From NCBI RefSeq assembly GCF_000718785.1, contig NZ_JOCA01000030.1, positions 124,001-188,000 of the forward strand: DNA of 64,000 nucleotides, in the 5' to 3' direction. Position numbers and translations under genes: made by a program. Shown here piece by piece: positions 5,091 to 14,428 of the stretch. Each line of letters begins with the position of its first letter. Within the stretch, counting starts at the first letter, position 1. Origin of the DNA: Streptomyces sp. NRRL WC-3626. Its GTDB lineage: Bacteria; Actinomycetota; Actinomycetes; Streptomycetales; Streptomycetaceae. The notes beneath the pieces are model-generated. The model did not search any database and was not told the DNA's origin. It was given only the letters and a program-made list of their open reading frames with translations.

Positions 5091-6107
5091 ATGGAACTTG
5101 CCTACATTCCCAGCCCGTCGAGCGGGGTGCTGTACCTCGGCCCCGTTCCGCTGCGCGGCTACGCGTTCTGCATCATCATCGGTGTCTTCGTTGCCGTCTG
5201 GCTCGGCAACAAGCGCTGGATCGCCCGGGGCGGGCGGACCGGCACGGTGGCCGACATCGCTGTCTGGGCCGTGCCGTTCGGTCTGCTCGGCGGCAGGCTC
5301 TACCACGTGATCACGGACTACCAGCTGTACTTCAGCGAGGGCCGTGACTGGGTGGACGCCTTCAAGATCTGGGAGGGCGGCCTCGGTATCTGGGGCGCGA
5401 TCGCCCTCGGTGCGCTGGGCGCCTGGATCGGCTGCCGGCGCCGTGGCATCCCGCTGCCCGCCTACGCCGACGCCATCGCGCCGGGTATCGCCCTCGCCCA
5501 GGCGATCGGCCGCTGGGGCAACTGGTTCAACCAGGAGCTGTACGGGCGGTCCACCGATGTGCCGTGGGCCGTGGAGATCACGTCGTCCGCCGACGGGCGG
5601 ATGCCGGGGACGTATCACCCGACGTTCCTGTACGAGTCGCTGTGGTGCGTCGGGGTGGCGCTGCTGGTGATCTGGGCCGACCGGCGGTTCAAGCTGGGGC
5701 ATGGGCGGGCGTTCGCGCTGTATGTCGCGGCGTACTGCGTGGGGCGGTTCTGGATCGAGTACATGCGGGTCGACGAGGCGCATCACATTCTCGGGCTGCG
5801 GCTGAACAACTGGACGGCTGTTCTGGTGTTCCTGCTGGCGGTGCTGTACATCGTGGTCTCGGCGCGGAAGCGGCCGGGGCGGGAGGATGTGGTCGAGCCG
5901 GTTACCTCCGGTGGTGAGGGGGATTCCGAGGGCTCGGGTGACGCCGGTGAGGCCGGGGTGGAGAAGGGTGAGGAGGGTTCCTCTTCCGAGAAGAAGGACA
6001 CTTCTGAGTCCTCCGAGGCTTCTGAGTCCGCCGACACCTCCGACACCTCCGAGTCCTCTGAGGACGAGGCGGCCAAGGACGGGGCCGGGTCGGCGAAGAA
6101 GAGCTGA
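5091..6107 (+). CDS. lgt: Prolipoprotein diacylglyceryl transferase Lgt
   Basis: A 338-residue inner-membrane enzyme that moves diacylglycerol from phosphatidylglycerol to the lipobox cysteine of preprolipoproteins. Several transmembrane helices are evident. The Lgt signature is present as AIGRWGNWFNQELYG at about residues 138-152, and GGRLYHVIT and EGGLGIWG occur at about 67-75 and 95-102. The last 75 or so residues form a hydrophilic tail rich in Ser, Glu and Asp that is not part of the catalytic fold; long C-terminal tails are common in actinobacterial Lgt. The tail's DNA uses T in wobble positions (TCT, TCC, GGT) more than its surroundings. It is followed by a strong hairpin. Confidence 0.96.
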   Translation: MELAYIPSPSSGVLYLGPVPLRGYAFCIIIGVFVAVWLGNKRWIARGGRTGTVADIAVWAVPFGLLGGRLYHVITDYQLYFSEGRDWVDAFKIWEGGLGIWGAIALGALGAWIGCRRRGIPLPAYADAIAPGIALAQAIGRWGNWFNQELYGRSTDVPWAVEITSSADGRMPGTYHPTFLYESLWCVGVALLVIWADRRFKLGHGRAFALYVAAYCVGRFWIEYMRVDEAHHILGLRLNNWTAVLVFLLAVLYIVVSARKRPGREDVVEPVTSGGEGDSEGSGDAGEAGVEKGEEGSSSEKKDTSESSEASESADTSDTSESSEDEAAKDGAGSAKKS

Positions 6108-6287: not shown

Positions 6288-7118
6288 TCAGGGTCTGGTG
6301 GTCAGGGAGAGGGTTCTCTGGGCTGCCAGGACTACCGCCGTGTCGATGAAGGTGCCGTTGGGGAGGGCCTGGGCGCCCGATGTCATCGCCGCCGCCTTGA
6401 GGATGGTCTCCGCTTGTTCGATCTCCTCCTCCGTGGGGAGGTAGGCGCGCTCGATGACCGGCAGCTGGCGGGGGTGGATCGCGGCGCGGCCCAGGAAGCC
6501 CAGGGCGCGGCCCCGGGCGCAGGACGCCGCCAGACCGTCCAGGTCCCGGATGTCCGGGTGCACGGACTGGGTGGGCGGGGCCAGTCCCGCCGCCCGCGCG
6601 GCGACCACCACCCGGGAGCGGGAGTAGTCGAGGCCGGCGTCGTCACGTACGCCCAGGTCGGCCCGTAGATCCGCCTCACCGATGGCGATCCCGCGCAGGG
6701 ACGGGTGCGCGGTGGCGACGGCATGGGCGCGTTCGATGCCGAGGGCCGTCTCCAGGAGGGCGTACAAGGGCAGTGCTCCGCCGTGCGCGGACACCGCCCG
6801 GCGGGCGACGCGCACGACGTCGGACGGCGACGACACCTTGGGCAGACGCAGTCCCGACAGCCCGGGGGACGGTGCCACCGCCGCGAGGTCGGCGCGGGAC
6901 CAGGGACCGGACACGGCGTTGACGCGGACATGGACCGGCACCGGCTGGGGGTCGCGCAGCAGCTCGGCCGTGGCGGAGCGGGCGTAGGCCTTGCGGTCGG
7001 GGGCGACCGCGTCCTCCAGGTCGATCACCACCACGTCGGCGCCCGAGGTGAGCGCCTTCGCCACCACCGGAGGACGGTCGCCGGGGGCGTACAGCCAGGT
7101 CAGCGGGAAGCCCGTCAC
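6288..7118 (-). CDS. HpcH/HpaI aldolase / CitE-like CoA lyase family protein
   Basis: About 276 residues. The family includes citrate lyase beta, malyl-CoA and citramalyl-CoA lyases, which cleave C-C bonds of acyl-CoA substrates with Mg2+. Visible motifs are WLYAPGDRP near the N-terminus, VVIDLEDAVAPDRK near residue 30, RVNAVSGPW near 67, LPKVSS near 93, the metal-ligand region LETALGIE near 125 and IGEADLRADLG near 150. The CoA substrate cannot be read from sequence. The GTG start overlaps the TGA of the CoA-transferase gene by four bases, so the two are coupled and probably act in sequence on one acyl-CoA. It is the last gene of the operon. Confidence 0.88.
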   Translation of the reverse strand: MTGFPLTWLYAPGDRPPVVAKALTSGADVVVIDLEDAVAPDRKAYARSATAELLRDPQPVPVHVRVNAVSGPWSRADLAAVAPSPGLSGLRLPKVSSPSDVVRVARRAVSAHGGALPLYALLETALGIERAHAVATAHPSLRGIAIGEADLRADLGVRDDAGLDYSRSRVVVAARAAGLAPPTQSVHPDIRDLDGLAASCARGRALGFLGRAAIHPRQLPVIERAYLPTEEEIEQAETILKAAAMTSGAQALPNGTFIDTAVVLAAQRTLSLTTRP

Positions 7119-8380
7119 AGGGTGCCCTCCGCGCGCAGCCCGGCGAGGTCGGCCGGGGTGAGGCCCAGCTCGGTGAGGACCTCCTCGGTGTCCGCGCCGT
7201 GCGGACGGCCCGCCCAGCGGATCGCGCCCGGGGTGGCGGAGAGCCGGAAGAGCACGTTCTGCATACGCAGCGGGCCCAGCTCGGGATCGTCGACCGTGGT
7301 GATGGTGTTCAGGGCCTGGTACTGCGGGTCCGTCATCACGTCCCGTACGTCCTGGATCGGTGCGACGGCCGCCTCCGCCTTCTCGAAGGCGGCCAGCACG
7401 TCCGCGCGGGTGTGCCGGGCGATCCAGCCGCCGACGGCCTCGTCCAGGACGTCCGCGTGCCGGGCCCGGTCCTCGCCGGTGGCGAACCAGGGCTCGTCGA
7501 TCAGATCGGGCCGGCCCACCAGCACCATCACCCGCTCGGCGATCGACTGGGCCGAGGTGGAGACGGCTACCCAGGTGCCGTCGGCGGTGAGATAGGTGCC
7601 GCGCGGGGCGTTGTTCTGGGAGCGGTTGCCGGTACGGGGCTGGACGTGGCCCAGCTGGTCGTACCAGGTCGGCTGGGGGCCCAGCACGGTCAGGATCGGC
7701 TCGATCAGCGCCATGTCGACGACCTGGCCCTCTCCCGTGCGGTCCCGGCCGGCGAGCGCGGTCATGACCGCGTACGCCGTGGTCAGGCCGGCGATGGAAT
7801 CCGCCAGGCCGAACGGCGGGAGGGTGGGCGGGGCGTCCGGTTCGCCGGTGATCGCGGCGAAGCCGCTCATCGCCTCGGCGAGGGTGCCGAAACCGGGGCG
7901 GTGCGCGTACGGGCCGAACTGGCCGAAGCCGGTGACCCGGGTGAGGATCAGCCGGGGGTTGACGCCGGACAGCTCGGGCCAGCCCAGGTCCCACTTCTCC
8001 AGGGTGCCGGGGCGGAAGTTCTCGATGATCACGTCGGCGGTCTCGGCGAGGCGCAGGAGGGTGCTCCGGCCGCCGGGTGTGGACAGGTCGAGGGTGATGG
8101 TGCGCTTGTTGCGGCCGAGCATCTTCCACCACAGGCCGACGCCGTCCTTCGACGGGCCGTGGCCGCGGGAGGGGTCCGGTTTCCTCGGATGCTCGACCTT
8201 GACGACCTCCGCGCCGAAGTCGCCGAGCAGGGTCGCGGCGAGGGGGCCGGCGAAGAGGGTGGCGAGGTCCAGGACGCGCAGGCCGGTGAGCGGGGGGTCG
8301 GCGGGGGAGCGGGGGGCGGCGGGCGATGCTGCCGGCCGTCGCTCCGTTGGAGTCGGTGTCCCAGCCGCCGGACACCGCAC
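7115..8380 (-). CDS. CaiB/BaiF family CoA-transferase, start unclear
   Basis: A class III CoA-transferase that moves CoA between carboxylic acids through an aspartyl-CoA intermediate. The domain starts at GLRVLDLATLFAGPLAATLLGDFGAEVVKVE and shows IIENFRPGTLEKWDLGW, RVTGFGQFGPYAHRPGF and, as candidate catalytic Asp, the residue in GQVVDMAL or the SPADPP-proximal region cannot be fixed without alignment. Length of the real domain is about 395 residues, normal. The only in-frame GTG (8380) lies inside sequence that encodes the end of the upstream ADP-ribosylglycohydrolase in another frame, and no ribosome binding site precedes it. The first 30 residues are therefore probably not native. See the linked finding on gene fusion or deletion at about 8320. 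Confidence 0.82.
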   Translation of the reverse strand: MRCPAAGTPTPTERRPAASPAAPRSPADPPLTGLRVLDLATLFAGPLAATLLGDFGAEVVKVEHPRKPDPSRGHGPSKDGVGLWWKMLGRNKRTITLDLSTPGGRSTLLRLAETADVIIENFRPGTLEKWDLGWPELSGVNPRLILTRVTGFGQFGPYAHRPGFGTLAEAMSGFAAITGEPDAPPTLPPFGLADSIAGLTTAYAVMTALAGRDRTGEGQVVDMALIEPILTVLGPQPTWYDQLGHVQPRTGNRSQNNAPRGTYLTADGTWVAVSTSAQSIAERVMVLVGRPDLIDEPWFATGEDRARHADVLDEAVGGWIARHTRADVLAAFEKAEAAVAPIQDVRDVMTDPQYQALNTITTVDDPELGPLRMQNVLFRLSATPGAIRWAGRPHGADTEEVLTELGLTPADLAGLRAEGTL

Positions 8381-9737
8381 GGCGGACGGAGCCGGTGAAG
8401 TCGCCGTCGGCGTGGGTGAGGGCGGCGGCGATCAGGGCGGTGTTGGGGACGGCGTGCACCCAGTGGTGGGTGGCGGCGTAGGTGGCGTGCAGGGCGTCCA
8501 CCACGGTGTCGAAGTCGGTGTGCTGGTGGGCGAGTTCGACGGCCTGGCGGACGGCGTGGGAGAGGCGGGAGCGGGGCGGGACGACGGTGAGTCCGGTGCG
8601 CAGGCAGGCGTGCACGTCGTGGTCGCCGGTGGCGGCGGTGGCGATGACGGCCGCGGTGAACATCGCCGCGTAGACACCGTTGGCGGTATGGGTGAGGGTC
8701 GCGTCGCGGTGGGCCTGTTCCGCGGCGGCGGCCGGGTCGCCGGCGTTGGTCCAGCCGTGTACGTCGGCGCGGATCAGGGCGCCGATCCACTCGCGGAAGG
8801 GGTTGTGGTGGCGGGCGGTCAGCGGGGGTTCCAGGCCGCTGAGGAGGTTGCGGTAGGCGATGCGTTCGGCGGTGAAGGTGCGGCCGGCGGGGAGTTCGTC
8901 GAGCCAGACGGTGGCTACGTCGGTGGGGGTGAAGGCGCGGGTGTGGCGTTGGAGGACGAGAAGGTTGAGGAGGGGGTAGTTGAGGTCGTCGTCCTCGGGC
9001 ATGCCGTCGATGTTCTCGGCGAGGGAGGTCGTCGCGGAGCGGCGGTTCCAGGGGTAGCGGGTGAGGAGGTCCTGGGGGACGCCGTGGGCGGTGAAGTAGG
9101 TCTTCAGGGGCCAGTTGCCGGTGGCCTTGGCGAGTTGGCGGATGCCTGTCAGGGGGAGCTTCTCCACTGGTTTGCCCAGGAGGCAGCCGACCGCTCTGCC
9201 GAGCCAGGCGGCTTCCAGGGCGGTGGGGTGTGCTGCTCGGGGGGTGTCTGCGCGGCCCGGCGCCTGCGGGGTGCCGTCGCGCCCACCCGTGCCGCCCCAG
9301 CGGCACGATTGCCCGCGGAGTGCGGGGGTGTGGGGCGGTGGTTGTTCGTGGAGTGCGGAGGTGTGCGGCGGCTGCTCGCGGAGGGGGGAGGTGTGGGGCG
9401 GTGGGTGTTCGTGGTGTGCGGGGGTGGGTGGTGTGGGGCGGTTCGCGGGGGCGGGCGGCCAGTCGGGGCACAGGGACTTGATGCGGGTCAGGTCTGTCGG
9501 TTCCTCGTCGGACAGTCTGCTGGGGAGGTCGGCCAGTTCGTCCAGGAGGTCGGTGGCCAGGAGGCGGAGGTACGGGGAGGCAGGGGTGGCCGACGCGCCC
9601 GCGTGGTGCGGGGCTTCGGGGCCGGCCGCTGCCTGCCAGCGGGCTGCGACGGCGGAGGGTTCGCGGCCGTCCTGCGTGGCCTGGCGGAGCTCGTGGCCGA
9701 TCAGGTCCTCCGGCTGGACCCAGGTCAGTCGGAGCAT
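8322..9737 (-). CDS. ADP-ribosylglycohydrolase family protein (copy 4), C-terminus lost
   Basis: Homology covers about 472 residues from ATG 9737. Residues 1-95 form a conserved N-terminal region (MLRLTWVQPEDLIGHELRQA at the start). Residues 95-171 are a Pro/His-rich linker whose DNA includes dispersed repeat B. The ADP-ribosylglycohydrolase domain runs from about 174, with the N-terminal metal motif in GMPEDDDLNY and the C-terminal one in GGWDTDSNGATAGS. After that motif the family normally continues for roughly 60 residues; here similarity stops at 8322 and the frame runs on, without a stop, through the CoA-transferase gene in the wrong frame and into the CitE-like gene in the right frame (6288). 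The start overlaps the end of copy 3 by 13 bases. It is probably inactive or unstable unless the junction is an assembly error. Confidence 0.65.
9251..9319. repeat. Dispersed repeat, family B, copy 2, inside a coding region
   Basis: About 69 bp, nearly identical to the intergenic copy at 6181-6249 apart from a CT/CC difference and a change in the small loop of the palindrome. It lies in frame inside the linker of ADP-ribosylglycohydrolase copy 4 and encodes roughly residues 140-163, including WGGTGGRDGTPQAPGRA. The neighbouring 9320-9450 is degenerate G-rich tandem sequence encoding PPPHT..LHEQ units. Confidence 0.75.
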
Positions 9738-10906
9738 CCGGGACCCCCCAGCTCCGCGAACGCCCGCTCGTGGGCGCGGCGGCGGTCCACGTCCCGCGCG
9801 AAGATCTCGCGCGTCACGGCCGTGAGCGCCGACGCCGGCTCCCACAGGTCGAGGCGGCTGGCCTCCGCCACCGTCTTCGACCAGTCCTCGGGCACCGGCG
9901 AGCCGAGCGCGCCCGCCACCGCGCCGGCCATCGTGGCGATGGAGTCGCAGTCGCGGCCGTAGTTCACCGCGCCCAGTACCGCGTGCCGGAAGTCGCCGCC
10001 GGCCACCACCAGCATGCCCAGCGCCACCGGGAGTTCCTCGATGGCGTGCAGCCGGGACGGACGGCGTGCGCCCAGAGAGGGGGAGCGGTAGTCGGGGCCG
10101 ACCGTGTCGTACGGCGTCACCGCCTCCCGCAGCGGGCCCAGCGCCGACTCGAAGTCCGTGTACCGCGCGGCGACTTCGCACACCTTCTCGATCGCCTCCC
10201 GCGTGCCGTCCTTCGCCAGGGACAGGCACACGGCGACCACCGAGTCCGCCGTCGCGCCCGGCGCGCACGCCGCCGCCACCGCCGCCGCGAGGACACCGGC
10301 CGCCTCCCTGCCGTACGACGACTGGTGCGCGCCCGCGACATCCAGCGCCTCTGCGTAGGCGGCGGCCGGGTGGGCGGCGTTGACCAGGCCGACCGGGGCC
10401 ATGTACATCGCGGCCCCGCAGTTGACGATGTTGCCGGTGCCGGCCTCGCGCGGGTCGACGTGGCCGTAGTGCAGTCGGGCCACCAGCCACTTCTCGGCGA
10501 GGAAGATCCGCTGCAGCGGCAGTGCCTCCGCCTCGAGTTCCGGGATCCAGCGCGGGTTCGTCATCAGGTCCGGGACCAGGTGGCCGGCGACGGCGTACGC
10601 GTCCAGGTGGTCGCGGACCGTCGCGTACACCCGTACCAGCGCGTGCGTCATGAGGGTGTCGTCGGTGACGTGGCCGTCGCCCTTGTGGTACGGCGCGATC
10701 GGGCGGGCGGTGCGCCAGCCGGCGCCGTTCCACGGGCCGACGACACCGTGCACCCGCCCGCCGTGGCGCTCGACGATCTGCTCGGGGGAGTACCCCTCGA
10801 CCGGCCCGCCGAGGGCGTCACCGACGGCCGCTCCCACGAGGGCGCCGGTGATCCGCTCGTCCAGGGGGAGCCCTCGGCCGGGGTTTTCTGACTGTTCGCG
10901 CTTCAT
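9725..10906 (-). CDS. ADP-ribosylglycohydrolase family protein (copy 3)
   Basis: 393 residues. Members of this all-alpha, two-Mg2+ family (DraG, ARH1, ARH3) remove ADP-ribose from proteins or hydrolyse related N- or O-glycosidic bonds. The N-terminal metal motif is VTDDTLMT near residue 80 and the C-terminal one is YGRDCDSIATMAGAVAGAL near 315, both intact, so the protein is probably catalytically competent. It lacks the long low-complexity linkers of copies 2 and 4. It starts 7 bases after the stop of copy 2 and overlaps the start of copy 4. The substrate is unknown. Confidence 0.9.
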   Translation of the reverse strand: MKREQSENPGRGLPLDERITGALVGAAVGDALGGPVEGYSPEQIVERHGGRVHGVVGPWNGAGWRTARPIAPYHKGDGHVTDDTLMTHALVRVYATVRDHLDAYAVAGHLVPDLMTNPRWIPELEAEALPLQRIFLAEKWLVARLHYGHVDPREAGTGNIVNCGAAMYMAPVGLVNAAHPAAAYAEALDVAGAHQSSYGREAAGVLAAAVAAACAPGATADSVVAVCLSLAKDGTREAIEKVCEVAARYTDFESALGPLREAVTPYDTVGPDYRSPSLGARRPSRLHAIEELPVALGMLVVAGGDFRHAVLGAVNYGRDCDSIATMAGAVAGALGSPVPEDWSKTVAEASRLDLWEPASALTAVTREIFARDVDRRRAHERAFAELGGPGCSD

Positions 10907-10913
10907 GCCCGAA

Positions 10914-12434
10914 TCATCCCTTCACGGGGGCCGGTTGTGCGGCTTCCAGGAGCCCGGCGAGTTCCACCAGATCCGTGCCGGTGAGCCGGGGGAGTACGCA
11001 GCCGGAGAGGGTGCGGCAGCTCTCCCGCCACGACTTCGGGACCGACGCGCCGCCGCCCAGCGCGCCGGTGAGGGCGCCGGCGAGCGCCGGGGCGGAGTCC
11101 GCCACCCGCGACAGACAGGCCGCCGCCGGGACCGCCTCCGCGATGCGGCCGTGGGCGGCGATGGTGAGGGCGAGGGCGACGGGGACGGTCTCGGCGGCGG
11201 CCACGCCGTAGCTGTAGACGTGGTCGACGATCTGGTGCTCCAGCGGTGGTACGAGGGCGAAGGCGCTGTCGGCGTCCGCCGCGAGTTTCAGGGCGTGCCG
11301 GGCGTTGCGGCCGATCTCCGTGTCCTCGGGCAGCTCGGCGCAGGCCGCCGCCACACACGTGTGCGGATCCGCGCCGGTCAGCGCGAGGGAGACGGCGGCG
11401 GCCATGGCGCGGGCGCCGTGCACTCCGTCGCCGTCCTGGGTGTAGCGGGCGTCGAACTCCGCGAGGCCGGCTGCCGCCCGGGGGTCGCCGGGGTGGGCCA
11501 CGGCCAGGACGCAGGCGCGTACGCAGGCGGCGTCGTCGAAGTAGTGCGGGTTGTCGTGGCCGGTGGCGGGAGGGCGCAGGCCGGTGGCGAGGTTGCCGAG
11601 GCCGGCCCGGACGGAGATGCGGGCGCGCAGCGGGAGTACGGCGGACTCCGTCTCGGGGGCGCGGTCCGCCGCGGCGGCGATCTCACCGGCGAGGGTGTTC
11701 CAGGTCAGGTCGATCGCCGCGCGGGTGCGGCGCTCCCGGCTCAGGTCGCCGAAGGCGGTGTCGTCTCCGGCGCGCAGGACCGCCTCCGCGGCGAAGGCCG
11801 CCCATTCGGCGTCGTCGGAGGGGCCCAGCCGCAGGGGTTCGGAGGGCTGGTTGAGGGCGATGGGGACGGGGAGGGTGGTCGTGGCGTTCTGCTCCGCGAA
11901 GGTGTCGAGTTCGCGGGTGAGGCGTCTTGTCCACTCCGGCATTCGCGCCGCGCGGTGGCGGGCGGCGGGCCAGCCGGCGGCGTCGCCCGCGGCGAGGCCG
12001 AGGAGCAGGCCCGTGATTCTTGCCTGCGGCTGCTTGGCGGGACCATGTGCGTGCGGCTGCCGCCGGGGCGGAAGTTCGGCCTCGGCTTCGCCTTCGGCCG
12101 GGGATTCGTTCCCACCCGCACCACCCGTGCGGCTCTCGTCGTCGGGTGCGGGTGGCCCCTGTGGGGCCGTCCCGCCGTCGGCGACCGTGGGTGGGGTGAG
12201 TGGGGTGGGTTCCGCGTCGGCGACCGTGGGTGGGGTGTGTGGGGTGGGTTCCGCGTCGGCGACCGTGGGTGGGGTGTGTGGGGTGGGTTCCGCGTCGGCG
12301 GGTGTGGGTGGGGTGAGTGGGGCGGGTTCCGCGTCGGCCGGCGCGGGTGGGTGGTTCGTGTGCTCGGGTGTGGGCCGGGGGGTGGTTTTCGCCGGGGCCG
12401 CCGCCGGGCGTTCCGTTTCCGTGGGGGTCGTCAT
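10914..12434 (-). CDS. ADP-ribosylglycohydrolase family protein (copy 2), repeat-bearing and motif-degenerate
   Basis: 506 residues. The first 130 or so are a Pro/Thr/Ala-rich, probably disordered region with four 13-residue repeats of the type ADAEPTPHTPPTV, encoded by a 39-bp tandem repeat. The ADP-ribosylglycohydrolase domain begins at about residue 145 (ITGLLLGLAAGDAAGW). Its N-terminal metal motif reads PSDDAEWA instead of T-D-D-T, and the C-terminal motif reads SRVADSAPALAGAL where copies 1 and 3 have GRDxD, so one metal-binding Asp is missing. It may be regulatory or have changed chemistry. The ATG overlaps the stop of copy 1 (ATGA), giving translational coupling. Confidence 0.88.
   Translation of the reverse strand: MTTPTETERPAAAPAKTTPRPTPEHTNHPPAPADAEPAPLTPPTPADAEPTPHTPPTVADAEPTPHTPPTVADAEPTPLTPPTVADGGTAPQGPPAPDDESRTGGAGGNESPAEGEAEAELPPRRQPHAHGPAKQPQARITGLLLGLAAGDAAGWPAARHRAARMPEWTRRLTRELDTFAEQNATTTLPVPIALNQPSEPLRLGPSDDAEWAAFAAEAVLRAGDDTAFGDLSRERRTRAAIDLTWNTLAGEIAAAADRAPETESAVLPLRARISVRAGLGNLATGLRPPATGHDNPHYFDDAACVRACVLAVAHPGDPRAAAGLAEFDARYTQDGDGVHGARAMAAAVSLALTGADPHTCVAAACAELPEDTEIGRNARHALKLAADADSAFALVPPLEHQIVDHVYSYGVAAAETVPVALALTIAAHGRIAEAVPAAACLSRVADSAPALAGALTGALGGGASVPKSWRESCRTLSGCVLPRLTGTDLVELAGLLEAAQPAPVKG
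12175..12330. repeat. 39-bp tandem repeat, four units, with G-quadruplex-type motifs
   Basis: Four near-identical 39-bp units begin at 12175, 12214, 12253 and 12292, and a partial fifth follows. On the plus strand each unit contains GGG-T-GGGG-TGNGT-GGGG-(T/C)-GGG, starting at 12189, 12228, 12267 and 12306, which fits the standard intramolecular G-quadruplex pattern. The plus strand is the template for the minus-strand gene. The repeat keeps the reading frame (13 codons per unit). Confidence 0.9.
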
Positions 12435-13435
12435 CGCCGTGTCTCCTCGGACAGCAGGTCCGCGACAGCCAGGACGTGGTGGCCCGCCATCGTCGGGAGG
12501 CAGGTGCCCCGGGCCGGGGTGATCGCCGACGACCAGGCGGGCGGGATCGCCGAGGCGCCCCGGGTCGCACCCGCCAACGCGCCCGCCACCGCCGCCGTGG
12601 TGTCGGCGTCGCGGCCCATGTTGACGGCCGTCAGTACCGCCGGTTCGAAGTCGCCGTCGGCCGCCGCGTACGCGCCGAAGGCGAGGGCGACCGCCTCGGG
12701 GGCCAGGTCGGTCCACGGGTAGCCGCCGATCACCACCGCCGCGCGCACCGCGCGTTCGCCCAGGTGGGCGGCGGTCACGGCGCGGCGCAGTGAGCGGGCG
12801 GTCCAGGAGTCCTCCGGGACCACCGCCAGCGCCGAGGCCACCACCGCGACCACCGGCGCGCCCGCCATCGCCGCCGCCACACCCGCCGCGACCGCCTGGC
12901 CGCCGTAGATGCCCTCGCCCTCGTGGCTGACCGAACCGTCGATCGCCGCGAGCCGGGCCGCCTCGTCGGGCCGGCCGGCCGCGAACACCCCGTGGGGCGC
13001 CGCCCGCATCGCCAGCCCGTCGCTCCAGGCGTGCCGGTGCTGGGCGGAGATCGGGGCCGCCAGCCCCCGGCGCAGATTCTCCAGCGTGCCCCGCTCGCTG
13101 AACCCGGCCCCCCGGAAGGGGCCCTCCGCGCGGTCGGCGATCTGCTCGTGCCAGGCCGCCTCCACATGCGCCGGGGTGAGCGCGGAGCCGTGCCGGGCCA
13201 GCAGCAGGCCCGAGAAGATCGCGTACTCGGTGTCGTCCGTGCCCGCCGGGCGCTCCGCCACGTATCCCGTGATGCGCCCCCATCGCGCGCGGATCTCGGA
13301 CGGTTTCATGTTCTCGGCCGGGGCGCCCAGCGCGTCCCCGACGGCCAGCCCGAGCAGTGCGCCGCGCGCCCGCTCGCGGAGCCCGAGGGTGTTCCCGGGG
13401 GCCGGGACAGAGGGGATGGGGACGGTCGATGCCAT
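12431..13435 (-). CDS. ADP-ribosylglycohydrolase family protein (copy 1)
   Basis: 334 residues and the first gene of the operon. Domain start ARGALLGLAVGDALGAPAE near residue 24, N-terminal metal motif GTDDTEYAIF near 65, SHEGEGIYGGQAVAAGVAAA near 170, and C-terminal metal motif MGRDADTTAAVAGALAGA near 275. All conserved Asp residues are present, so it is the copy most likely to be an active ADP-ribosyl or ADP-ribose hydrolase. Its closing ATGA overlaps copy 2. The intergenic region upstream is shared with the divergent VIT-family gene. Confidence 0.9.
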   Translation of the reverse strand: MASTVPIPSVPAPGNTLGLRERARGALLGLAVGDALGAPAENMKPSEIRARWGRITGYVAERPAGTDDTEYAIFSGLLLARHGSALTPAHVEAAWHEQIADRAEGPFRGAGFSERGTLENLRRGLAAPISAQHRHAWSDGLAMRAAPHGVFAAGRPDEAARLAAIDGSVSHEGEGIYGGQAVAAGVAAAMAGAPVVAVVASALAVVPEDSWTARSLRRAVTAAHLGERAVRAAVVIGGYPWTDLAPEAVALAFGAYAAADGDFEPAVLTAVNMGRDADTTAAVAGALAGATRGASAIPPAWSSAITPARGTCLPTMAGHHVLAVADLLSEETRR

Positions 13436-13611: not shown

Positions 13612-13696
13612 CTGGCGGGCAGGAATGAGGAGGCGTACATTGAGCGTTGTCGAAGAATAGAATCTGTCCAAAGAAGAGGCTGTGGGGGACACGGGA

Positions 13697-14428
13697 ATGG
13701 CGATCATCGAGACCGAGGCGGCACTGCACGAGGCACACCGCGACAACCACACGCACCGGGACGTGAACGGCGGCTGGCTGCGCCCCGCGGTGTTCGGCGC
13801 GATGGACGGGCTGGTCTCCAACCTCGCCCTGATGACCGGTGTCGCCGGCGGCTCGGTCGGCCAGCAGACCGTCGTGATCACCGGCCTCGCCGGACTGGCC
13901 GCCGGCGCCTTCTCCATGGCGGCCGGCGAGTACACCTCCGTCGCCTCCCAGCGCGAGCTGGTCGAGGCCGAGCTCGACGTCGAACGGCGCGAGCTGCGCA
14001 AGCACCCCAAGGACGAGGAGGCCGAACTCGCCGCGCTCTACCAGACCCGCGGCGTCGAGCCCGAACTGGCCCGCGAGGTCGCCCGGCAGCTGTCGAAGGA
14101 CCCCGAGCAGGCGCTGGAGATCCACGCCCGTGAGGAGCTCGGCATCGACCCCGGCGACCTGCCCTCGCCCACCGTCGCCGCCGTGTCCAGCTTCGGCTCC
14201 TTCGCGCTGGGCGCCCTGCTCCCCGTGCTGCCGTATCTGCTCGGCGCGAGCAGCCTGTGGCCCGCCGTGCTGCTGGCGCTGCTCGGCCTCTTCCTGTGCG
14301 GTGCCGTGGTGGCCAAGGTGACGGCGCGCAGCTGGTGGTTCAGCGGTCTGCGGCAGCTCGCGCTCGGCGGCGCGGCGGCCGGTGTGACGTACGCCCTGGG
14401 CACGCTGTTCGGGACGGCCGTAGGATGA
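13697..14428 (+). CDS. VIT1/CCC1 family metal transporter
   Basis: About 243 residues. The VIT/CCC1 family moves Fe2+ or Mn2+ out of the cytosol. The family core is GGWLRPAVFGAMDGLVSNLALMTGVAG at residues 20-46 (first helix with the metal Asp), followed by a helix with GAFSMAAGEYTSVASQ and then a cytoplasmic helical stretch rich in Glu/Arg (about 80-145) that carries metal-sensing residues in this family. Three more hydrophobic segments close the protein. ATG 13697 follows GGGGGA at good distance; GTG 13682 is an alternative. It is transcribed divergently from the ADP-ribosylglycohydrolase operon and may be iron-regulated. Confidence 0.9.
   Translation: MAIIETEAALHEAHRDNHTHRDVNGGWLRPAVFGAMDGLVSNLALMTGVAGGSVGQQTVVITGLAGLAAGAFSMAAGEYTSVASQRELVEAELDVERRELRKHPKDEEAELAALYQTRGVEPELAREVARQLSKDPEQALEIHAREELGIDPGDLPSPTVAAVSSFGSFALGALLPVLPYLLGASSLWPAVLLALLGLFLCGAVVAKVTARSWWFSGLRQLALGGAAAGVTYALGTLFGTAVG

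What the first reader, a model, noticed from the sequence alone, without database searches (positions are those of the whole stretch)
6288..13435. Operon of four divergent ADP-ribosylglycohydrolase paralogues with a CoA-transferase and a CoA-lyase
Seen: four genes of one family in a row with ATGA or short overlaps (copies 1-4 at 12431-13435, 10914-12434, 9725-10906, 8322-9737), then CaiB/BaiF and CitE-like genes joined by GTGA. Their metal motifs differ: TDDT with GRDAD (copy 1), SDDA with VADS (copy 2, one Asp lost), TDDT with GRDCD (copy 3), EDDD with WDTDS (copy 4). Known: this family removes ADP-ribose from proteins, or cleaves related compounds, with two Mg2+. Inference: the paralogues have split roles, perhaps active hydrolases with a non-catalytic partner, and act with the acyl-CoA pair on one undescribed pathway or modification. 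I know of no defined function for this set.
Basis: partly seen in the sequence, partly recalled or inferred. Interest (0 to 1): 0.7.

Follow-up and report, generated by a model that had tools for sequence, protein, structure and literature searches.

The report
Ribose-compound catabolic operon with four ARHs
Four relatives of ADP-ribose-removing enzymes sit in a Streptomyces operon whose counterparts in other actinobacteria also carry a sugar importer, a LacI-type repressor and mostly a ribokinase, so the set more likely breaks down an imported ribose-containing compound than edits proteins.

Summary
In detail: four PF03747 (ARH/DraG) genes, then CaiB/BaiF and CitE-like genes, form one tightly packed array. 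Corrections: copy 4 has no stop at 8322 (its C-terminus and the CaiB start are missing, 142-157 bp against the nearest relatives), and copies 2 and 3 are 7 bp apart. The order ARH1-2-3-4-(ribokinase)-CaiB-CitE is fixed in 70 of 70 informative loci of 80, all close kin by copy 1, and recurs elsewhere on the chromosome in other genera and families. There a LacI-family repressor and a CUT1-type sugar importer precede it, with a shared operator core. One Streptomyces has repressor and importer (no ribokinase) with the array at the window's own VIT1-lgt site, so the window looks trimmed. Best reading: catabolism of an imported ribosylated compound; ARHs free ribose, ribokinase phosphorylates it, CaiB/CitE treat an acid part. 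Copy 2's lost metal-motif aspartate and a lost aspartate in CaiB are fixed across families. Substrate unknown; no activity shown. Inferred S. coelicolor equivalents SCO2028-2031 are in print as uncharacterised ARH homologues; two were inactive on uracil-ADP-ribose. I found no description of the operon in the held literature. New variant of a known kind.

The parts
12431..13435 (-). ARH1 (copy 1), PF03747, complete metal motif TDDT ... GRDADT
   Evidence: both motifs invariant in 90 of 90 orthologues; closest solved relatives are DraG structures
10914..12434 (-). ARH2 (copy 2), PF03747 with ~135-residue low-complexity N-terminus; SDDA ... VADS, first C-terminal Asp lost
   Evidence: at the lost-Asp column V 78, L 3, I 1, R 1 of 83, no D; ATGA overlap with ARH1
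9725..10906 (-). ARH3 (copy 3), PF03747, complete metal motif TDDT ... GRDCDS
   Evidence: TDDT in 85 of 86 (1 gap) and GRDxDS in 86 of 86
8322..9737 (-). ARH4 (copy 4), PF03747, EDDD ... GWDTDS; C-terminus and stop codon missing in this genome
8300..8322 (-). junction where 142 bp (L046, L048) or 157 bp (L053) of relatives' sequence, ARH4 end and CaiB start, are absent; relatives with a ribokinase gene carry it here
   Evidence: alignments; ribokinase at this place in 40 of 70 loci; in 17 relatives with both sides listed the sides lie 148-238 bp (4) or about 1.0-1.15 kb (13) apart
7115..8380 (-). CaiB/BaiF-type class III CoA-transferase homologue; Asp found in most aligned solved relatives is Gly; possible start GTG at 8380 inside the ARH4 frame
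   Evidence: RPGFGTLAEAMSGF with Gly in 84 of 84 rows that have a letter; Asp in 4 of the 5 solved relatives whose alignment was shown
6288..7118 (-). CitE-like HpcH/HpaI lyase, best NCBIfam model RipC/Ccl but far below its cut-off
   Evidence: conserved Arg, Glu, Asp columns invariant in 84 of 84
13682..14428 (+). VIT1-family transporter, divergent neighbour marking the upstream edge of the operon
   Evidence: next to ARH1 in 80 of 80 loci
5091..6107 (+). lgt, convergent neighbour marking the downstream edge
   Evidence: name from position and recall; not run against Pfam

Best explanation
The array is the surviving core of an actinobacterial catabolic operon for an imported, ribose-bearing compound. 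In the full form a LacI-family repressor controls a CUT1-type ABC importer, four intracellular ARH-family glycohydrolases, a ribokinase, a CaiB-type protein and a CitE-type lyase. Proposed path: import; ARH1, ARH3 and ARH4 cut different ribofuranosyl (or related) glycosidic bonds with their metal sites, ARH2 acting as an accessory or altered subunit; ribokinase makes ribose 5-phosphate; the acid part is handled as a CoA ester and cleaved by CitE. Shown: gene order, families, motif conservation, a conserved operator-like core. Inferred: substrate class, order of steps, what the repressor binds, roles of ARH2 and CaiB, and that the window form arose by loss. In the window lineage the repressor and linked importer are gone; a related importer persists elsewhere in the genome.
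For: Order ARH1-4-CaiB-CitE in 70 of 70 informative loci of 80; ribokinase in 40 of 70, with 96% of 52 ARH4-ribokinase junctions overlapping by 1, 4 or 8 bases. Same order in 9 of 9 fetched loci of other genera/families as far as contigs reach, 8 of 9 with ribokinase, without VIT1 or lgt beside them. Binding protein, two permeases and LacI-family protein precede ARH1 in 7 of 7 of these with upstream DNA and in Streptomyces L194-L197; L196 is at the VIT1-lgt site. Families: SBP_bac_1, BPD_transp_1, Peripla_BP_3; best NCBIfam for the repressor is RbsR (153.8 bits, cut-off 382); ribokinase TIGR02152 295.5 bits, just under 299.65. Core AAACGTTT upstream of LacI in 9 of 10, expected 0.03. Transporter + ARH + ribokinase sets also occur in staphylococci (PMC3637587, PMC3900703, passages) and, with a sugar kinase, in E. 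coli (PMC10819704). No 19-residue window over 1.1 in hydropathy in the first 60 residues of the four ARHs (no signal-peptide predictor was run).
Against: Ribokinase is absent from 30 of 70 loci, from the window, and from L172 and L195-L197; the genome's best match is 45% identical, though a general ribokinase could serve. The importer (linked or not) goes with ARH2 only weakly: 53 of 72 genomes with ARH2 against 14 of 29 without, Fisher p = 0.02, not corrected for relatedness. LacI orthologue and operator core are absent from the window. The LacI helix-turn-helix model was not matched in L168 as called and only weakly in L172 (22.4 of 27 bits). CaiB lacks the Asp seen in 4 of 5 shown solved relatives, so CoA transfer is uncertain. 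No direct substrate evidence; CUT1 importers also carry non-ribose sugars (recalled). ARH1 can stand without the others.
Confidence: 0.6

Rival explanations
1. One reading: a module that reverses endogenous ADP-ribosylation of proteins or nucleic acids, with active copies 1 and 3 and a non-catalytic partner; the acyl-CoA pair belongs to the same pathway.
For: ARH1 and ARH3 keep complete metal motifs and ARH1's nearest solved relatives are DraG. Streptomyces ARH homologue SCO5809, at another locus, removes ADP-ribose from RNA phosphate ends (PMC11833690, passages read).
Against: Linkage in relatives to sugar importer, LacI-family repressor and ribokinase; SCO2028 and SCO2030 without detectable activity on U-ADP-ribose (PMC13036486), one substrate only; no ADP-ribosyltransferase domain among the neighbours that were run against Pfam (not every neighbour was run).
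Confidence: 0.15
2. Nucleoside/NAD salvage: the importer brings in nucleosides or NAD/ADP-ribose fragments and the ARHs cut ribose off them, as a nucleoside hydrolase would; CaiB and CitE are regulated with it but act on separate acids.
For: Known family chemistry acts on ADP-ribose (recalled). E. coli yegTUV couples a predicted nucleoside symporter, an ARH and a sugar kinase (PMC10819704, passages); staphylococcal sets couple an ARH, a cytosine/purine/uracil-type permease and ribokinase (PMC3637587, passages).
Against: The importer here is CUT1-like (SBP_bac_1), the class usual for oligosaccharides and glycosides (recalled); CaiB and CitE overlap in 93% of 83 loci and stay in the unit in 9 of 9 outgroup loci, hard to square with unrelated roles.
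Confidence: 0.2
3. A vertically inherited or chance tandem array without common function, kept because it lies in the conserved trp-glt region.
For: The 80 loci share the region; ARH1 sits without the others in L199 and L201.
Against: The same order recurs at other places in other families and in Streptomyces L194, L195 and L197; mostly short or overlapping junctions; near-invariant motifs.
Confidence: 0.04

Closest known systems
S. coelicolor SCO2028-SCO2031 (uncharacterised DraG/ARH homologues)
   Same: Four consecutive locus tags, listed together as ARH homologues (PMC9411070, passages; three of the four in PMC5087735, passages); taken here to be the orthologous array from tag order and nearness to the trp tags.
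   Different: The passages read treat them as ADP-ribosyl hydrolases one by one; no operon, importer, repressor, ribokinase, CaiB or CitE is mentioned there. Orthology is inference; I did not fetch that genome.
E. coli yegTUV (GgaR/YegW-controlled)
   Same: Transporter + ARH-family enzyme + sugar kinase in one operon (PMC10819704, passages).
   Different: One ARH not four; nucleoside symporter not ABC; GntR-family not LacI-family regulator; no CaiB or CitE; function also unknown.
Staphylococcal ARH - permease - ribokinase trio (S. epidermidis SERP2216-2218 and cassette islands)
   Same: An ARH gene, a transporter gene and a ribokinase gene side by side (PMC3637587 and PMC3900703, passages).
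   Different: One ARH; cytosine/purine-type permease; no LacI, CaiB or CitE in the rows seen; named as genes only, no function given in the passages.
Bacteroides ribose-utilisation (rus) loci
   Same: Ribokinase with riboside-cleaving enzymes and a dedicated importer (gene list seen in PMC10434189; the defining paper is recalled and was not held).
   Different: TonB/SusD import and a nucleoside hydrolase in the listed genes; no four-ARH set, no CaiB or CitE.
Itaconate/citramalate degradation (Ict-Ich-Ccl / RipABC; pathway recalled)
   Same: CaiB-type plus CitE-type pair; CitE's best NCBIfam model is RipC_Ccl.
   Different: Far below the equivalog cut-offs (CitE 150.9 of 375 bits; CaiB's best model 242.8 of 750), no hydratase gene in the set, CaiB Asp replaced by Gly.

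Membership tests
ARH/DraG ADP-ribosylhydrolase superfamily (PF03747) | PF03747 domain above the gathering score | tested here: met
   115-196 bits against 26.2 for copies 1-4; models of the L168 ARH2 and ARH4 match DraG/ARH3 structures (listed TM-scores by target about 0.50-0.72)
ARH/DraG ADP-ribosylhydrolase superfamily (PF03747) | Two-metal motif (T/S)DD ... DxD(T/S); assignment of metal ligands is recalled | tested here: inconclusive
   Met by ARH1 and ARH3; ARH4 has EDD/DTDS; ARH2 lacks the first C-terminal Asp in 83 of 83
DraG / Tri1 equivalogs (functional ADP-ribosylarginine hydrolases) | Score above NCBIfam equivalog cut-off | tested here: not met
   Best 76.1 of 337 bits (DraG) and 48.6 of 490 (Tri1), both for ARH1
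ADP-ribosyl hydrolase by activity | Removal of ADP-ribose from a macromolecule | not testable with these tools
   Literature: SCO2028 and SCO2030 without detectable activity on U-ADP-ribose (PMC13036486); no other substrate seen
Sugar catabolic operon of LacI-CUT1 type | LacI-family gene, SBP_bac_1 binding protein and two permeases in one unit with enzymes | tested here: met
   In relatives: 7 of 7 outgroup loci with upstream DNA and Streptomyces L194-L197
Sugar catabolic operon of LacI-CUT1 type | The same genes present in the window's own operon | tested here: not met
   Absent at this locus; importer relative unlinked at G000:C1 (58/72/75% identity); no close LacI relative (best 40%)
Ribokinase (TIGR02152) | Equivalog cut-off; GGKGANQA / GAGDTF motifs (roles recalled) | tested here: inconclusive
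   L168 copy 295.5 of 299.65 bits; motifs nearly invariant in 53 orthologues; gene absent from the window
Class III CoA-transferase (CaiB/FRC) | Catalytic Asp of the family (role and position recalled, read off the alignment) | tested here: not met
   Gly at that column in 84 of 84 rows with a letter; Asp in 4 of 5 shown solved relatives, Gly in 9fn0 chain B. Pfam domain itself met (407.7 bits)
CitE/CLYBL-type acyl-CoA lyase | Conserved Arg, Glu and Asp of the active site (roles recalled) | tested here: met
   R (VRVNA), E (LLETA) and D (GEADL) in 84 of 84; aligned to solved acyl-CoA lyases

The most novel reading that the evidence does not exclude
An undescribed actinobacterial pathway uses the ARH fold not to edit ADP-ribosylated macromolecules but as a set of four complementary ribosidases, one of them a conserved metal-site-deficient subunit, to take apart an imported compound made of ribose units joined to a hydroxy or dicarboxylic acid. 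A CaiB variant lacking the usual Asp and a CitE lyase finish the acid part. If so, many bacterial genes annotated as ADP-ribosylglycohydrolases would be small-molecule catabolic enzymes.
Probability: 0.35. Interest if true: 0.8.

Novelty: new variant of a known kind. Interest (0 to 1): 0.62.

Why it matters
Streptomyces carry unusually many ARH homologues, and the literature takes them as a sign of a lively ADP-ribosylation metabolism whose major protein transferases are still unknown (PMC5087735, passages). Four of the eight listed for S. coelicolor (PMC9411070) would be this array. If it is a catabolic unit, much of that imbalance goes away, and the ARH fold gains a metabolic role that can be tested directly through the LacI-linked operons, whose operator and inducer are accessible. 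It also gives a natural case of a conserved metal-site-deficient ARH paralogue.

Tried and rejected
Anti-phage defence: no PADLOC match for the six proteins. Tandem duplication within Streptomyces: rejected, as copies 1-3 are each one clade across families with full or near-full support and copy 4 one clade at 81/95, with long branches between copies (10 rows per copy; four other ARHs of the genome are very long branches, so relations among copies are unsure). An ARH4-CaiB fusion as a conserved trait: rejected, since the relatives looked at have a stop and a separate start and none of 17 relatives with both sides listed has them joined (the single longest match reaches query base 198 of 301, about 40 past the junction, and the list is cut off). 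A true deletion and an assembly fault cannot be told apart. Obligate partnership with the importer: only weak association. Operator core upstream of ARH1 without linked LacI: 0 of 80 loci and not in the window; among four other Streptomyces loci tested, in L180 only. L175, fetched as a partial relative, holds only a diverged ARH4-like gene among other genes, not the operon. Literature for the operon: searches of the held open-access library gave no description (one search listed 25 of 108); subscription papers and preprints are not held. Of one search's four hits I read passages of three (PMC10434189, PMC3637587, PMC3900703) and only the listing of PMC3321955. PMC5036795 was seen in one passage, where the SCO2028 mention is a primer/insert name beside SCO2038.
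Full report
WHAT IS THERE. The window lies in a Streptomyces genome (G000:C30:124001-188000; the genus is inferred from named loci with up to 95% identical copy 1). On the minus strand between VIT1 (13682-14428, +) and lgt (5091-6107, +) lie ARH1, ARH2, ARH3, ARH4, CaiB and CitE. All four ARHs pass PF03747. The genome has ten PF03747 matches, which I count as nine genes: these four and five elsewhere, one of the five matched in two pieces.

THE WINDOW COPY IS DAMAGED. The frame of copy 4 has no stop at 8322 and runs on, open, through the CaiB region into the CitE frame. Against L046 and L048 the window lacks 142 bases, against L053 157, that hold the ARH4 C-terminus and the CaiB start. In a DNA search of 41 genomes (own plus 40, many without the operon), 17 relatives have both sides of the junction in the listed rows; there the sides lie 148-238 bases apart (G002, G009, G014, G021) or about 1.0-1.15 kb apart (13 genomes). 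The longest single match in a relative covers query 1-198 of 301, some 40 bases past the junction; the list is cut off. This may be a real deletion or an assembly fault.

CONSERVATION IN STREPTOMYCES. A scan with copy 1 gave 80 loci, the nearest relatives by that protein. All 80 have VIT1 and gltB on one side. 70 are long enough to show the rest, and all 70 have ARH1-ARH2-ARH3-ARH4-CaiB-CitE in order; one more ends in ARH4, and nine end at or within 0.5 kb of the end of ARH1. This sample leans to close kin. In a draw of 101 genomes of the genus, own included, 72 have a strong ARH2 match (E below 1e-100, my cut), so the set is common but not universal. Exceptions: L201 has ARH1 beside VIT1 followed by other genes, with ARH2 elsewhere in that genome; L199 has ARH1 alone between lgt and gltB in a genome that has a full operon on another contig (L195). 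L202 ends 0.2 kb after ARH1 and so tells nothing by itself, but its genome has no strong ARH2 match.

A RIBOKINASE IN THE MIDDLE. In 40 of the 70 loci a gene of about 300 codons lies between ARH4 and CaiB. It is a PfkB-family ribokinase; the L168 orthologue scores 295.5 against the cut-off of 299.65. The window and its nearest relatives lack it, and the best match in the window's genome is 45% identical. Junctions, with starts set by a simple gene caller of my own, are mostly tight: the median gap is -4 for ARH1-ARH2, ARH2-ARH3, ARH4-ribokinase, ribokinase-CaiB and CaiB-CitE, and -13 for ARH3-ARH4; the loosest is ARH1-ARH2, with 70% of 81 within 60 bases and a 10-90% range of -4 to 248.

THE SAME OPERON ELSEWHERE, WITH AN IMPORTER AND A REPRESSOR. 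ARH3 searches found matches in 27 of 101 genomes of the family draw and 11 of 98 of the class draw; outside the genus these are nine in two other genera of the family and six in three other families. I fetched three of the nine and all six (L168-L174, L177, L178). All nine show the same order as far as their contigs reach; eight have ribokinase (not L172), in L177 in one open frame with an FGE-domain part. None has VIT1 or lgt beside it. Seven contigs reach upstream of ARH1: all seven carry a solute-binding protein, two permeases and a LacI-family protein there (in L174 the last was found by tblastn). L168's proteins are nearest to Microbispora ones (up to 94%; best 120 of 1492 and of 6922 matches listed). 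L170 and L171 have an extra ~650-codon gene between ribokinase and CaiB with an FGE-sulfatase domain (86% alike); L178 has a gene of like size and place, not compared.

THE LINK. Five Streptomyces loci, chosen because their binding-protein match lay beside the ARH match, carry the importer directly upstream; four (L194-L197) show LacI too, and L198 ends before it. L196 has LacI-permease-permease-binding protein-ARH1-4-CaiB-CitE, without ribokinase, between VIT1 and lgt, the window's own site. So the window operon looks like a trimmed form of the larger one; that is inference. The window's genome keeps an importer of the same kind on another contig (58%, 72% and 75% identity; next binding proteins 27-28%) but no close LacI relative (best 40%). 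Presence of the importer (linked or not) and of ARH2 over 101 genomes is only weakly tied: 53 both, 19 ARH2 only, 14 importer only, 15 neither; p = 0.02 without correction for kinship.

OPERATOR. The core AAACGTTT, in most loci within longer palindromes, lies upstream of LacI in 9 of 10 LacI-linked loci (not L172); 0.03 loci are expected from first-order resampled sequence; in the seven loci scanned whole it occurs only there. It is absent from the ARH1 upstream region of all 80 nearest Streptomyces loci and of the window, and from that of the unlinked importer. That LacI binds it is inferred.

ACTIVE SITES. ARH1 has TDDT and GRDADT in 90 of 90; ARH3 TDDT in 85 of 86 (one gap) and GRDxDS in 86 of 86; ARH4 DDD in 84 of 84, the E before it in 82, and DTDS in 84 of 84; ARH2 keeps DD in 83 of 83 but at the first C-terminal Asp has V 78, L 3, I 1, R 1 and no D. 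Seven to nine rows per copy come from outside the genus. AlphaFold models of the L168 ARH2 (mean pLDDT 82.8) and ARH4 (85.5) match DraG and ARH3 structures, ARH2 with large rmsd, 7-11 angstroms in the listed rows. CitE keeps its conserved residues, whereas CaiB has Gly where 4 of the 5 shown solved relatives have Asp; the fifth, chain B of benzylsuccinate CoA-transferase, also has Gly. The catalytic role of that Asp is recalled.

HOW IT MOST LIKELY WORKS. Sugar importer, LacI-family repressor nearest RbsR in NCBIfam, ribokinase and coupled hydrolases make catabolism of an imported ribosylated compound the simplest account. ARHs hold the terminal ribose through two metals (recalled), so the fold is apt for ribosidase work without an ADP part. 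Four copies suggest several linkages, as in a ribose oligomer or a decorated riboside. CaiB and CitE suggest an acid released alongside. Single ARH genes beside a transporter and a ribokinase or sugar kinase in staphylococci and E. coli point the same way, though their functions are unknown too. The CUT1 ATPase is not in the set; in Streptomyces a shared ATPase usually serves (recalled). The substrate, and whether CaiB transfers CoA, are open.

WHAT IS IN PRINT. SCO2028-SCO2031 are named as uncharacterised DraG/ARH homologues (PMC9411070; PMC5087735 names three of them; passages). SCO2028 and SCO2030 were purified and showed no detectable activity on U-ADP-ribose (PMC13036486; abstract and passages). 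SCO5809, elsewhere, removes ADP-ribose from RNA phosphate ends (PMC11833690; passages). I take SCO2028-2031 to be ARH1-4 in that order; this is inferred from tag order, not from sequence. Searches found no account of the operon in the held library.

Noticed in passing
window 8300-8322: 142-157 bases missing at the ARH4/CaiB junction relative to three close relatives; ARH4 then stays open in frame into CitE.
   Followed up: partly
L189 8196-9342 (G000:C1:38195-39341): A further ARH4-like paralogue in the same genome is matched in two pieces with a stop inside, so probably broken; similar genes without listed stops occur in other Streptomyces.
   Followed up: no
L187 9900-12852 (G000:C1:262899-265851): Stand-alone CUT1-type importer related to the operon-linked one, without a LacI gene called beside it.
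   Followed up: partly
L199 9178-10200, L201 9146-10132: ARH1 without copies 2-4 remains in the trp-glt region of some Streptomyces; G014 (L199) has in addition an importer-linked operon on another contig (L195).
   Followed up: partly
L170 4880-6859, L171 5187-7226, L178 3735-5681, L177 2648-5638: Extra ~650-codon gene between ribokinase and CaiB, FGE-sulfatase domain in its C-terminal part (L170); in L177 an FGE part is in one open frame with ribokinase. Role unknown.
   Followed up: no
window 7859-7900 (CaiB residues 161-174): CaiB has a nearly invariant RPGFGTLAEAMSGF segment in which the Asp of 4 of 5 shown solved class III CoA-transferase relatives is Gly.
   Followed up: partly
L003 1501-2409 (G000:C4): Another ARH homologue of the genome reads THHT where the family has TDDT, so probably altered metal binding.
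   Followed up: no
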